NCBI GenBank assembly: GCA_016929195.1
Contig: JAFGJG010000078.1
Span: 1 to 38,649, forward strand
DNA: 38,649 bases
From: Thermoleophilaceae bacterium
GTDB lineage: Bacteria > Actinomycetota > Thermoleophilia > Solirubrobacterales > Thermoleophilaceae
Direction of reading: 5' to 3'
Shown here: piece after piece, positions 23,744-28,701 of the stretch
How the letters are laid out: each line of letters starts with the position of its first letter
Numbering within the stretch: position 1 is the first letter of the stretch
Notes under the pieces: generated by a model
The model's input: the letters and a program-made list of their open reading frames with translations, nothing else
Database searches by the model: none
What the model was told of the DNA's origin: nothing
Made by a program: the position numbers and the translations under genes

Positions 23744-23815
23744 TGGGCGCGGCTGGGTTCGAACCAGCGACCTCTCGCGTGTGAGGCGAGCGCTCTCCCA
23801 CTGAGCTACGCGCCC
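23744..23815 (-). tRNA. tRNA-Val (anticodon CAC)
   Basis: A complete cloverleaf on the minus strand: acceptor stem GGGCGCG paired with CGCGCCC plus discriminator A, D-arm with AGCTCAGTGGGAGAGC, anticodon stem CTCGC/GCGAG around loop CTCACAC (anticodon CAC, reading GTG), and T-arm GCTGG-TTCGAAC-CCAGC. CCA is not encoded. It lies 15 bases downstream of ridA on the same strand and may be co-transcribed with it; TAGACT at 23828-23833 could also serve as its own -10 element. Confidence 0.97.
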
Positions 23816-24272: not shown

Positions 24273-24953
24273 TCAGGCGCCTGCGGAGGCGCAGAGGACG
24301 TAGATCACCACCGTGTGCGCCGCTCCGTCTGAGTTACGTCGAGCCTCGACGAACCAGCCGGTGGGTTCGGTTCCGGGCAGCGGAGCCGTTCCGGAACTGT
24401 CCGCCGGTCGATTGACCGTGACGATCACGTTCGGCTGGCCGCCGGAAGCGACAGTGGGGACGACATCGCTTCCGCCGCCGACCACGGTCTCACCCGCCTG
24501 GCACTGAGCGTCGTCCGACTGGACCTGGCCGGTCACGCCGTTACCGACCGGGAAGCTCAGTGAGGCGGTTCGCACCACAACCTGCTCCACGCCGGTCGGC
24601 CCGGGATCCCCCTGCGGCCCCTGAACGCCCTGCGTTCCCTGCACTCCCTGGCTGCCCGGAACTCCCTGCGAGCCCTGGACCCCGGCCGCCCCGCGCGCGC
24701 CGGCGGCCCCACGGGCGCCGGCCGCTCCGCGATCACCGTGCAGCTTCGTCCGCTCGGAAGAGCGGAAGTCGCTCAACGCGAGCGAGCTGTTCTTCACCTT
24801 CGCCGAGGACACGGCGTTCTTCTTGATGTGCCTAGCCCCGACGCTGTTCTTGGCCAGTTGCGTCGCTGCGTACCCGGTACCACCGAGTGCCACGAAGAGA
24901 GCGACGAGCGAGATGACGAGGGCGGGGGAAGGGCGACTGATGCGCCTTCTCAT
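24273..24953 (-). CDS. Secreted protein with collagen-like Gly-X-Y repeats
   Basis: A 226-residue exported protein. The N-terminus has a basic stretch and a hydrophobic helix ending in LGGTGYAA, followed by QLAKNSVGARHIKKNAVSS, a segment seen again and again in secreted proteins of Thermoleophilia and related actinobacteria. Residues 73-121 are 16 uninterrupted Gly-X-Y triplets, first Ala/Arg-rich and then Gln/Val/Pro-rich, able to form a collagen-like triple helix. The C-terminal domain (about 100 residues, with GETVVGGGSDVVP and a final VIYVLCASA) is probably a beta-sandwich head; it contains two Cys. I chose the ATG at 24953 because GGAGGT precedes it at seven bases. The role is probably on the cell surface. 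Confidence 0.88.
   Translation of the reverse strand: MRRRISRPSPALVISLVALFVALGGTGYAATQLAKNSVGARHIKKNAVSSAKVKNSSLALSDFRSSERTKLHGDRGAAGARGAAGARGAAGVQGSQGVPGSQGVQGTQGVQGPQGDPGPTGVEQVVVRTASLSFPVGNGVTGQVQSDDAQCQAGETVVGGGSDVVPTVASGGQPNVIVTVNRPADSSGTAPLPGTEPTGWFVEARRNSDGAAHTVVIYVLCASAGA
24591..24737 (-). repeat. Collagen-like triplet repeat region
   Basis: Sixteen consecutive Gly-X-Y codon triplets within the secreted protein gene. At DNA level the 5' part repeats a nine-base unit coding Gly-Ala-Arg/Gly-Ala-Ala, and the 3' part repeats Gly-(Val/Ser)-Gln units, so triplet number could change by slippage. Confidence 0.85.
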
Positions 24954-25061
24954 GGGACTGACCTCCATCCTTCGGTTTACCCAACATCCCCTGAGCACTC
25001 GGCACGACTCGCGCGAACTTCAGCCGGCGGCGGCCAACCTGGACGCGCTAGCCTTCACCCC

Positions 25062-25336
25062 GGACCGTGCTAGGCGGGGAGGTAGCGGTGCCCTGTCACC
25101 CGCAATCCGCTCTAGCGGGGCTGAATTCCCGTTCCGAGGGGTTCTGCCTTCGGGGCCAGTACGCCGGACAGAGGCGTCGATGGCCGGGTCCCGCGCGGTG
25201 GACGCTCGCGAACCAGGTCAGATCCGGGAGGAAGCAGCCTTAAGCGATACCGGCCATGCGTCGCGGACCAGCCTGGCCGGAGCCGATGACCGGCGGGCAC
25301 GCCCGGGGACGAGCTTCGACGGCGGGTGCACGGTCC
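25062..25336 (+). ncRNA. ffs: Signal recognition particle RNA, large (Alu-containing) type
   Basis: The 275-base RNA matches the Bacillus-type long SRP RNA in sequence order. The 5' Alu domain reads GGGGAGGTAGCGGTGCCCTG then CCCGCAATCCGCTCTAGC and TTCCGAGG; the S domain apex reads GAACCAGGTCAGATCC, a GGGA tetraloop, and GGAAGCAGCCTTAAG. The ends are fixed by a perfect nine-base-pair closing helix, GGACCGTGC (25062-25070) with GCACGGTCC (25328-25336). The RNA binds Ffh and targets membrane proteins to the translocon. A TAGCCT hexamer at 25049-25054, seven bases before the first base, is a likely -10 element. It lies near dnaX-ybaB-recR, a common neighbourhood for this gene. Confidence 0.94.
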
Positions 25337-25367: not shown

Positions 25368-26942
25368 CTAGAGGATGCTCGGGTGGCCGCGCTTCACGCG
25401 GTAGTGGAACTCGCCCGTCGGCAGCAGCTTGCCGCCCGGCTTGCGCACCGTGGCCACACGCTTCAGCGTGCAGCGGAAGTCCTTCTTCGACGCGACCGCC
25501 AGCCCATAGCCGTGGTGGTCGAACTCACCGCTCTTGACCCACGGGTTGCTCGACTTGAGGAGGTTGATGATCGCCTCGGGGGTCTTGGGGTTGTTCGGGT
25601 CGGCGGTCGGAAGGATGCCTCCGCCGCCCTCGCCGAGCCCGGGCGCCGAGATGGAGCCGCCCACGAACTCGGTGGCGAGCGCGCGCTTGTCGCTGTCGTT
25701 CAGACGCACGTCGCCGGCGACGAACGTGTGGATGTCGCCGGTCACGAACACGACGTCCTTGATCTTCTTGTTCCTGATGTGCCCGACCAGCTCCTTGCGC
25801 TCGGTCGGGTAGCCCATCCACGAGTCGAAGTTGATGATGTCGCCGCCGGGATAGTAGGTCCGCATGATCATCAGCTGATTCGCCACGACCTTCCACGCGG
25901 CGTCCGAGGACGCCAGGCGCTCCTTCACGAACTTCATCTGGCTGCGCCCGAGGTACTTGCGCGGCTGCTCGAGCTCCGGGCAGGCCGGGCCCACGACGGG
26001 ATCGCCGCAGGGCTGGTCGTCGCGGTACATGCGCGAGTCGCACAGGACGAGGTCCACGTTGCGGCCGAAGCGCGCCGCCCGGTAGATCCGCGTGCTCCCC
26101 CGCTTGGCGCCGTAGGTGGGCAGGCTCTCGAAGAAGGCCTGGTAGCCCGCCCGCTTGCGGGCATCCGAGTAGTGAAGCGCCGGGTCGAGCCCGCCGGTGG
26201 GCCCGGCGCCGCCGGCGTAGTTGTCCTGGACCTCGTGGTCGTCCCAGATGTTGATCATCGGGAAGCGCGCGTGCACCCGCCGGAGGTTCGGGTCGGTGCG
26301 GTAGAGCGCGTACTTCGACCGGTACTGGTCGAGCGTCTCGGCGGTGCCGACCGTGTCGTCGCGAACGCCGCCGGTGGGGCCGACCGGGTAGTAGTCCTCG
26401 GCGTAGATGTAGTCGCCCAGGCAGACCACGAAGTCGAGGTCCTCCTTCGCCAGCAGCGCGTGGGCGTTGAAGTACCCGAACGTGAAGTCCTGGCAGGAGA
26501 AGAAGGCGAAGCGCACCGGGTGGTTCGAGTCCGGCGGGAGCGCGGTACGGAAGCGCCCGATCGGGCTCTCCTCGTCGCGCGTGGCGAAGCGGTAGTAGTA
26601 CTCCTCGTACGGCCGCAGGCCCGTCACCCGCGCCTTCGCGTAGTGCCAGGTCGAGGAGTTGACCTTGACGAAGTCACGCGCGACGACCTTGCGGAAGCCG
26701 CGGTCGCGAGCGACCTGGAGCTCGACGGTGCCGCTGCCCTCCGCGGACGCCACCCGCGTCCAGAGCGTGATCCCGCGCGGAGCGGGGTCCCCCGACGCCA
26801 CGCCCTCGGCGAACCTGCCGCCGCGCAGGCTCGGCCGCCTCCGCGGCTTGGCGGCAATTGCTTCGGGCGCCAGCAGGACGGCGGCCGTGAGGCCGCTTGC
26901 CCCGGTGACGAACCGGCGTCGCGAGAGGAGGTCGCCGTACAA
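25368..26942 (-). CDS. phoD: Alkaline phosphatase D (PhoD family), Tat-exported
   Basis: A 524-residue phosphodiesterase/alkaline phosphatase of the PhoD family. The N-terminus carries a twin-arginine signal (SRRRFVTGASGL), then FAEGVASGDPAPRGITLWTR opens the N-terminal beta domain of PhoD. The metallophosphatase core has FFSCQDF, VVCLGDYIYAEDYY, NIWDDHEVQDNYAG and VTGDIHTFVAGD, providing the Cys, Asp and His ligands of the iron-calcium centre. It would act outside the membrane to free phosphate from organic phosphates or teichoic-acid-like polymers. The start is a TTG at 26942, nine bases after a TAGGCT hexamer that belongs to a good promoter, so the mRNA may be almost leaderless. Confidence 0.94.
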   Translation of the reverse strand: MYGDLLSRRRFVTGASGLTAAVLLAPEAIAAKPRRRPSLRGGRFAEGVASGDPAPRGITLWTRVASAEGSGTVELQVARDRGFRKVVARDFVKVNSSTWHYAKARVTGLRPYEEYYYRFATRDEESPIGRFRTALPPDSNHPVRFAFFSCQDFTFGYFNAHALLAKEDLDFVVCLGDYIYAEDYYPVGPTGGVRDDTVGTAETLDQYRSKYALYRTDPNLRRVHARFPMINIWDDHEVQDNYAGGAGPTGGLDPALHYSDARKRAGYQAFFESLPTYGAKRGSTRIYRAARFGRNVDLVLCDSRMYRDDQPCGDPVVGPACPELEQPRKYLGRSQMKFVKERLASSDAAWKVVANQLMIMRTYYPGGDIINFDSWMGYPTERKELVGHIRNKKIKDVVFVTGDIHTFVAGDVRLNDSDKRALATEFVGGSISAPGLGEGGGGILPTADPNNPKTPEAIINLLKSSNPWVKSGEFDHHGYGLAVASKKDFRCTLKRVATVRKPGGKLLPTGEFHYRVKRGHPSIL

Positions 26943-27015: not shown

Positions 27016-28701
27016 ATGGAGCGCCCGATGCTCTCGCTCTACCGCCGCCACCGCCCCCGCACCTTCCAGCAGGTGGTCGGCCAGGAGCACATCGTCCGCA
27101 CCCTCCGGAACGCGATCGAGCTCGACAAGGTCCACCACGCCTACCTGTTCGTCGGCTCGCGCGGCACCGGCAAGACGTCGATGGCCAAGCTGCTCGCCTG
27201 CGCCCTCAACGCCGACGGCGGCTCCACCGCCGACTTCGACCCGGACTCGCCCGAGGCCCGCGCGATCGTCGCCGGCACCTCGCTCGACGTCGTCGAGATG
27301 GACGCCGCCTCGAACAACTCGGTCGACGACATCCGCGAGCTGCGCGAGAACGTCGCGCTCGCGCCGATGCAGGGCCACAAGCGCGTCTACATCCTCGACG
27401 AGGCTCACATGCTGTCCGCGGCCGCCTGGAACGCCTTCCTGAAGACGCTCGAGGAGCCGCCCTCGCACGTGGTCTTCGTGCTGGCCACGACCGAGGCGCA
27501 CAAGGTGCCGGCCACGATCGTCGACCGCTGCCACCGCTTCGACTTCCGGCGCCCGTCGCTCGAGCAGATCGCCGGCGTGCTCGACCGCGTGGCGACGGAG
27601 GAGGACATCAAGCTGCCCGACGCCGCCGTGGGCATGCTCGCGCGCGCGGCCACCGGCAGCTTCCGAGACGCGCTCGGCACGCTCGAGCAGCTCGTCACCT
27701 ACGGCGGCACCGAGGTGAAGCTCGACGACGTCCTCGACATCCTCGGCGTGGCCGACGCCGAGCTGGTGCTCGACGCGGCCGAGGCGCTCGCCGACCACGA
27801 CCCGAAGACCGCGCTCCTCACCGTCAAGCGCCTGTCCGACTCGGGCAGGGACATCACCCAGTTCATGCGCGACCTGTCCGCGCACCTGCGCCACCTGTTC
27901 GTCGTCCAGACGCTCGGGGAGGTGCCCGACTCGTTCTCGGTCACCGCCGAGAGCACGGAGCGGCTCTCCGCGCAGGCCGGCCGCATCACGCAGGGCGAGC
28001 TGCTGCGCGCGATCGACTTCCTCGCCGCCGGCCTGGCGGCGACCAAGGACGGCTCCGAGCCGCGCATCCAGCTCGAGATGGCGCTGCTGAAGGCGACCCA
28101 GCCCCAGGCCGACCTCTCCATCCAGGCGCTGATGCACCGCATCGAGCAGCTCGAGACGCAGCTGGCGTCCGGTCGCCCGGCGCCGGAGCAACAGGCGCCG
28201 CCGGAGCCGGAGCCGGAGCCGGCTCCGGAGCCCGAGCAACCCTCCGGGGGAGGGGGCGCCGCTGTTCCGCGCGCGGCCGCCGTGAGCCGCGGCCCGAGCG
28301 GCCAGGCCGCGACCGCCGTGGCGGTGAAGGAGGCCGAGCCCGCCGCGGTGCTGGAGCTCGACCGCGTGCTGGCGCTCTGGCCGGCGGTCGCCGAGACGGT
28401 CACCGAGGAGAACGGCATGCTCGGCGCGGCGATTGGCGCCGCCCGTCCCGTGGATGTGGTCGGCGACCGCATGACGGTGGCCTTCCCACCCGACGCCGCC
28501 TTCGTGAAGAAGAAGGCGGAGGCCAACCGGGAGCTAGTCCAGGACGCCATCCGGGGGCTCACGGGGGTCTCGCTGTCGGTCGCTTACGAGCTGCGCGACG
28601 GCGGACCGGAATCCGAGCCGGTTACCCTCGGCGAAGCGGAGCTCATCGAGCGCCTGCGCGCCGAGTTCGCCGCCGAAGAGGTCTTCGAAGACGAGGAGTA
28701 G
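27016..28701 (+). CDS. dnaX: DNA polymerase III subunit gamma/tau
   Basis: A 561-residue clamp-loader ATPase. YRRHRPRTFQQVVGQEHI opens the AAA+ domain; Walker A is GSRGTGKTS (residues 47-55), Walker B is YILDEAHML, then WNAFLKTLEEPPSHVVFVL with the SRC-type sensor in VDRCHRFDF. The lid and collar domains follow to about residue 365, then a Pro/Glu-rich linker (390-410) and a C-terminal domain of about 130 residues like tau domains. The four zinc-binding Cys normally found between Walker A and Walker B are absent (residues 65-82 read with Asp and Ala instead). I keep the ATG at 27016; the ATG at 27028, with GGAG before it, is equally possible. ybaB and recR follow as an operon. Confidence 0.96.
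   Translation: MERPMLSLYRRHRPRTFQQVVGQEHIVRTLRNAIELDKVHHAYLFVGSRGTGKTSMAKLLACALNADGGSTADFDPDSPEARAIVAGTSLDVVEMDAASNNSVDDIRELRENVALAPMQGHKRVYILDEAHMLSAAAWNAFLKTLEEPPSHVVFVLATTEAHKVPATIVDRCHRFDFRRPSLEQIAGVLDRVATEEDIKLPDAAVGMLARAATGSFRDALGTLEQLVTYGGTEVKLDDVLDILGVADAELVLDAAEALADHDPKTALLTVKRLSDSGRDITQFMRDLSAHLRHLFVVQTLGEVPDSFSVTAESTERLSAQAGRITQGELLRAIDFLAAGLAATKDGSEPRIQLEMALLKATQPQADLSIQALMHRIEQLETQLASGRPAPEQQAPPEPEPEPAPEPEQPSGGGGAAVPRAAAVSRGPSGQAATAVAVKEAEPAAVLELDRVLALWPAVAETVTEENGMLGAAIGAARPVDVVGDRMTVAFPPDAAFVKKKAEANRELVQDAIRGLTGVSLSVAYELRDGGPESEPVTLGEAELIERLRAEFAAEEVFEDEE

What the first reader, a model, noticed from the sequence alone, without database searches (positions are those of the whole stretch)
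25062..25336. Long Alu-type SRP RNA in an actinobacterial setting
The RNA contains a full Alu domain and a perfect 9-bp closing helix, as in Bacillus. Most studied actinobacteria (Streptomyces, Mycobacterium) have the short form. Retention of the Alu domain suggests translation-arrest function or an ancestral state in this lineage.
Basis: partly seen in the sequence, partly recalled or inferred. Interest (0 to 1): 0.5.

Follow-up and report, generated by a model that had tools for sequence, protein, structure and literature searches.

The report
Long SRP RNA with Alu domain
This is the ordinary long form of a universal protein-targeting RNA, which keeps a translation-slowing domain that well-known actinobacteria such as Streptomyces lack; it is the usual form in this bacterium's own class, although several relatives have lost the domain separately.

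Summary
Window 25062-25336 (+) is a full-length match to Rfam RF01854 (Bacteria_large_SRP, 162.6 bits, model 1-256), with a complete Alu domain and a perfect 9-bp closing helix. It is the only SRP RNA found in the genome, which is class Thermoleophilia by its Ffh protein. Support: covariation, five-base loop-loop complementarity in 78 of 81 other long-form loci with paired changes in the other 3, and a -10-like element just upstream of the closing helix in 39 of 41 class members.

It is not unusual for its setting: 114 of 149 genomes of the class and about 170 of 296 of the phylum sample (hand counts) carry the long form. The class of G023, unnamed but Streptomyces-like in size, has 0 of 197 above the cut-off.

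Ancestral retention is supported. RpoB+RpoC trees need at least 4 form changes in the phylum sample and 5 in and around the class; one origin of the short form is rejected. In one genus the Alu domain is missing from the same dnaX-linked locus. Translation slowing is inferred from Bacillus, not tested.

The parts
25062..25336 (+). Long-form SRP RNA gene (Bacteria_large_SRP), about 275 nt
   Evidence: RF01854 162.6 bits, model 1-256; single copy
25049..25054 (+). Likely promoter -10 element, TAGCCT, which would put the transcript start near the first base of the closing helix
   Evidence: TAnnnT begins 13-17 nt before the model start in 39 of 41 class members, the window included; 0 or 1 of 41 in each of 11 control windows. 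Noticed and tested on the same 41. The sigma-70 consensus scan found no site
25062..25070 (+). Closing helix (helix 1), 5' strand
   Evidence: 9 perfect pairs with 25328-25336; 5 of the 9 show changes on both sides among 33 sequences
25328..25336 (+). Closing helix (helix 1), 3' strand
   Evidence: as above
25076..25094 (+). Alu hairpin, helix 3; loop side holds AGCGG 25084-25088
   Evidence: cmscan structure; loop
25099..25119 (+). Alu hairpin, helix 4; loop holds CCGCU 25107-25111, complementary to AGCGG of hairpin 3
   Evidence: AGCGG/CCGCT in 78 of 81 other loci, both loops changed in the other 3
25182..25281 (+). S domain (small-SRP match, the Ffh-binding part); tip GUCAGAUCCGGGAGGAAGCAGC at 25217-25238
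   Evidence: RF00169 60 bits; sequence
27016..28701 (+). dnaX, found near the SRP RNA in 12 of 18 other loci searched; here separated from it by one gene on the other strand
   Evidence: ORF; tblastn with a relative's DnaX hits 27034-28176, 40.5% identity, E 9e-78

Best explanation
The feature is the cell's only SRP RNA, in the ancestral bacterial long form. It is transcribed from a promoter just upstream, and its ends pair into helix 1. The S domain binds Ffh and recognises signal sequences emerging from the ribosome. The Alu domain folds into a closed, tRNA-like knot held by a five-pair loop-loop pseudoknot and by helix 1 in place of SRP9/14. It most likely reaches the elongation-factor site and slows translation until docking at FtsY ('dock and block', as in Bacillus). 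Shown here: identity, single copy, structure by covariation, likely promoter, distribution and history. Inferred from other bacteria: Ffh binding, ribosome docking and the slowing.
For: RF01854 full-length match and single copy. Covariation in the closing helix, helix 5 and the S domain. The five-base loop complementarity is present in 78 of 81 other long-form loci (79 Actinomycetota, 2 Firmicutes; 30 of them the best-scoring); the other 3 changed both loops: AGGGG/CCUCU twice (middle pair becomes G-U, all five pairs kept) and CGUGG/CCACU once (middle pair becomes U-A, one outer pair lost). This matches the five-pair pseudoknot and helix 1 described for bacterial Alu domains, and the dock-and-block mechanism for B. 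subtilis (passages of PMC8137916). A -10-like element lies just upstream of the closing helix in 39 of 41. Ffh and an HU-family protein are encoded in the genome. 114 of 149 class genomes carry the long form.
Against: Relatives live without the domain: 15 of 149 class genomes have only a short-type match, and 2 of family f104 a 209-214 nt form without a recognisable Alu core, so it is dispensable. HU, the proposed Bacillus Alu partner, does not track the Alu domain: 58 of 60 genomes have it, including all 17 short-form ones, and the 2 without a match are long-form drafts. Folding energy is only weakly better than shuffles. No expression data.
Confidence: 0.77

Rival explanations
1. The Alu domain is a structural relic: the long RNA is made, but the domain no longer slows translation in this lineage and serves at most for RNA stability or processing.
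For: Repeated loss in relatives shows that it is dispensable; no arrest test exists here.
Against: The two hairpin loops are nearly invariant in the loci examined and change together where they change, which a relic would not show.
Confidence: 0.16
2. The long form was regained by horizontal transfer, for example from a Firmicute, rather than retained.
For: The Alu core is close to the Paenibacillus and Pseudobacteroides sequences in the alignment.
Against: Long form in most of the class and in most deep branches of the tree. By eye, the S domain resembles that of class relatives (no SRP RNA tree was built). In one genus the short and long genes share a closely similar S domain and a dnaX neighbour, so that change happened in place.
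Confidence: 0.04
3. Only a short RNA from the S domain is made; the Alu part is not transcribed or is removed.
For: No RNA data; no terminator or promoter found by the consensus scan.
Against: The conserved -10-like element lies just before the closing helix in 39 of 41 class members; both strands of the closing helix covary.
Confidence: 0.03

Closest known systems
Bacterial large SRP RNA (Rfam RF01854; type case B. subtilis scRNA, by recall)
   Same: Full-length match, helix 1, two Alu hairpins with five-base loop-loop complementarity, long helix 5, S-domain tip
   Different: Found in Actinomycetota, class Thermoleophilia; 71% G+C; 16 of 101 model pairs not standard in the window
Bacterial small SRP RNA (RF00169; E. 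coli 4.5S, 82-nt Streptomyces scRNA)
   Same: Same S domain (60 bits, 25182-25281)
   Different: The short form lacks the Alu domain and helix 1. In the class of G023, 0 of 197 genomes exceed the RF01854 cut-off

Membership tests
Bacteria_large_SRP (RF01854) | Covariance-model score above the curated cut-off over the whole model | tested here: met
   162.6 bits against 60, positions 1-256
Bacteria_large_SRP (RF01854) | Alu domain with two hairpins and loop-loop complementarity | tested here: met
Bacteria_large_SRP (RF01854) | Helix 1 closing the two ends | tested here: met
   nine perfect pairs in the window, 5 of 9 covarying in relatives
Bacteria_large_SRP (RF01854) | S domain with the Ffh-binding tip; Ffh gene present | tested here: met
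   RF00169 match inside; Ffh on another contig
Bacteria_large_SRP (RF01854) | Transcribed as one RNA of about 270 nt | not testable with these tools
   only a conserved -10-like element
Translation-slowing Alu domain (dock and block) | Binds the elongation-factor site and slows translation | not testable with these tools
   reported for B. subtilis (PMC8137916 passage)
Translation-slowing Alu domain (dock and block) | HBsu/HU protein as partner of the Alu domain | tested here: inconclusive
   Only presence was tested: HU family in 58 of 60 class genomes, including G000 and all 17 short-form ones; the 2 without are long-form drafts. Binding cannot be tested

The most novel reading that the evidence does not exclude
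In Actinomycetota the SRP Alu domain is an ancestral, intact, ribosome-acting module that has been deleted in place again and again (at least 4 form changes on the phylum tree, at least 5 on the class tree), against a published statement that all Actinobacteria lack it. Sister genomes with and without it at one dnaX-linked locus would then be natural replicates for asking what SRP-mediated translation slowing is for in bacteria.
Probability: 0.65. Interest if true: 0.5.

Novelty: new member of a known kind. Interest (0 to 1): 0.3.

Why it matters
The RNA itself is ordinary. The distribution is the useful part: a 2006 paper states that the Alu domain is absent from all Actinobacteria and considers a single loss in their ancestor (PMC1586193, passages). 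More than half of the sampled phylum contradicts this, and loss is seen even within one genus. That gives matched pairs for testing the role of Alu-mediated slowing. It also shows that an RF01854 hit above the cut-off does not prove a long form: by hand count 42 of the 212 such genomes are short-type matches; the 18 of these that were re-scored span 98-232 nt.

Tried and rejected
Rejected: that the long form is exceptional in this phylum; that the short form arose once (AU test p 2e-31 for 32 short rows against 40 long; p 1e-28 for 28 rows without the clade G131, G027, G012, G088, a split chosen after seeing the tree); that HU presence tracks the Alu domain; horizontal gain. The RF01854 cut-off was dropped as a test of length, because Alu-less RNAs pass it; I used match length and score or, where one search printed no coordinates (rows weaker than E 1.6e-25), E below 1e-15.

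Limits of the counts. The 170 is a hand count (245 matched minus 75 weak); with 42 weak rows above the cut-off it meets the tool's 212, give or take a borderline row. One of the 170 (G135) is cut by a contig end. Of the 15 short-type class genomes 12 were fetched and 10 could be read at the RNA; the rest are classed by score and span. In the phylum tree three rows (G321, G327, G333) are called short only because RF01854 did not match; RF00169 was not run on them. The rows were chosen by me from the families seen, not at random; both outgroup rows were known to be long. Trees are quick LG+G4 searches; G540 has 38% and G553 44% of the columns. G199 (232 nt, ambiguous) was left unlabelled. Left out for lack of a usable RpoB: 7 of the 80 genomes (G000, G045, G138, G170, G274 no match; G022, G144 partial) and 5 of the 49 (G488, G503 no match; G548, G595, G564 fragments). 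G000 is thus in neither tree; its place rests on Ffh and the tool's kinship labels. No match: 3 of 16 genomes, 18 of 149, 28 of 296 with RF00169. The control B. subtilis did not ring in the SRP searches, so no match is not proof of absence; two other Firmicutes did ring. Promoter and terminator consensus scan: nothing.

Literature: nine searches (several with only the first 15-20 of many papers listed) showed no title or abstract start on a long SRP RNA in Actinomycetota. Nine papers were opened, by term search only, passages seen in eight and no term found in one. [quoted passage not shown]

Full report
What is there. Rfam's large bacterial SRP model matches 25065-25333 (+) end to end with 162.6 bits. 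The 5' part holds both Alu hairpins, followed by a long helix 5 and the S domain with its conserved tip. It is the only SRP RNA found in the genome; the small-SRP model finds only the S domain inside it. Nearby are a tRNA-Val, a collagen-like ORF and a PhoD-like phosphatase, and dnaX further downstream on the same strand.

Is it real structure? On 33 long forms (31 of the class, 2 Firmicutes) 53 of 101 pairs show changes on both sides (shuffles 40.5) and 80.6% of cells pair (shuffles 73.3%, slid 35-48%). In the closing helix 5 of the 9 pairs covary. The two Alu hairpins vary little, but their loops are complementary over five bases, AGCGG (25084-25088) with CCGCU (25107-25111). So it is in 78 of 81 other long-form loci; in the remaining three both loops changed, twice keeping all five pairs (one as G-U) and once keeping four. 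PMC8137916 (passages) describes a five-pair loop-loop pseudoknot and a helix 1 that makes up for the lack of SRP9/14 in bacterial Alu domains. Against: 16 of the 101 pairs are not standard in the window itself and energy alone is weak (z -1.70).

Transcription. A TAnnnT element starts 13-17 nt before the model start in 39 of 41 class members, against 0 or 1 of 41 in each of 11 control windows; in the window it is TAGCCT at 25049-25054. The pattern was noticed and tested on the same sequences. It points to a transcript that starts at the closing helix. A generic consensus scan found neither promoter nor terminator.

Whose genome? Ffh is 87% identical to a Thermoleophilaceae MAG and 73% to Candidatus Solirubrobacter pratensis: class Thermoleophilia, order Solirubrobacterales by the names of the best hits.

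How common? Own class: 131 of 149 genomes matched; 114 have the full long form (131 bits or more), 2 a 209-214 nt form, 15 a short-type match; 18 had no match (split by hand; 114 + 10 = 124 is the tool's count above cut-off). Phylum sample: about 170 of 296 long, 75 short-type, 51 without an RF01854 match (hand count); 268 of the 296 match RF00169. Short-type RNAs can exceed the RF01854 cut-off, so the cut-off is not a test of length. The class of G023, an unnamed 9.2-Mb genome that looks streptomycete-like by size only, has 0 of 197 above the cut-off and 43 weak matches. Of 16 genomes reached through named records 13 matched, 12 of them at full length (10 of 14 Actinomycetota, Solirubrobacter pratensis among them, and both Firmicutes); the 13th, G304, is a 220-nt form without a recognisable Alu core.

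History. RpoB+RpoC tree of 73 genomes, 72 of them labelled: at least 4 form changes (the FastTree differs in weakly supported places). Holding all 32 short rows together is rejected (p 2e-31). The two outgroup rows and most deep branches are long. In the class tree (61 rows) the form changes at least 5 times among 59 rows (56 of the class, 3 long outsiders; 15 short), leaving out the short outsiders G131 and G027. In one genus, G582 is long and G540 short, with closely similar S domains and dnaX just downstream in both, though only its first 25 or so codons are visible in G582: the Alu part was lost in place. G538, a single-contig genome of the own order, is short too. Parsimony gives no direction by itself; the outgroup and the shared Alu core make repeated loss likelier than repeated gain.

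How it works. The S domain with Ffh recognises signal sequences; the Alu domain, folded by the pseudoknot and helix 1, most likely enters the elongation-factor site and slows translation, as stated for B. subtilis (PMC8137916) and suggested by ribosome profiling of B. subtilis (PMC4359368, passages). None of this was tested here. HU, the proposed Bacillus partner, whose role a review calls unknown (PMC6022935), is present in 58 of 60 class genomes irrespective of RNA form; the two without a match are long-form drafts. If they truly lack it, HU is not an obligatory partner.

Against the literature. A 2006 paper (passages) says that the Alu domain is absent from all Actinobacteria; the data here contradict that. 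Another says that Gram-positive bacteria typically have it, and S. lividans has an 82-nt RNA. Nine literature searches, with capped lists, showed no held paper that maps the form across Actinomycetota; the SRP RNA survey that reviews cite was not available, so priority cannot be judged.

Verdict. A true long-form SRP RNA, a member of a known family, standard in its class. The interest lies in the repeated, in-place loss around it.

Noticed in passing
window 23744-23815 (-): tRNA-Val (CAC) upstream of the SRP RNA, on the other strand; tRNA genes also lie near the SRP RNA in some relatives (L138, L139, L148, L259, L270, L126).
   Followed up: no
window 25368-26942 (-): PhoD-like phosphatase ORF, convergent with the SRP RNA, 31 bases beyond the RNA's 3' end; it separates the RNA from dnaX, which follows directly in some relatives.
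   Followed up: partly
window 24273-24998 (-): Collagen-repeat-like ORF (Pfam PF01391, E 4e-9), divergent from the SRP RNA.
   Followed up: no
Short-type SRP RNAs score 60-89 bits with RF01854, at or above its cut-off, so annotation pipelines may label short forms as 'large SRP'.
   Followed up: yes
(control genomes): B. subtilis, by recall the type case of the long form, does not ring in either SRP search, while two other Firmicutes do; unexplained.
   Followed up: no
L260 (G016), L262 (G057), L154 (G177): Divergent Alu loops with changes on both sides (AGGGG/CCUCU, CGUGG/CCACU), natural variants of the pseudoknot.
   Followed up: yes
G484, G485 (family f105): Two long-form class members without a match to the HU family.
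   Followed up: no
L333 (G540) against L334 (G582): Same genus, dnaX just downstream in both, closely similar S domain: one RNA long, the other a hairpin without the Alu domain.
   Followed up: yes
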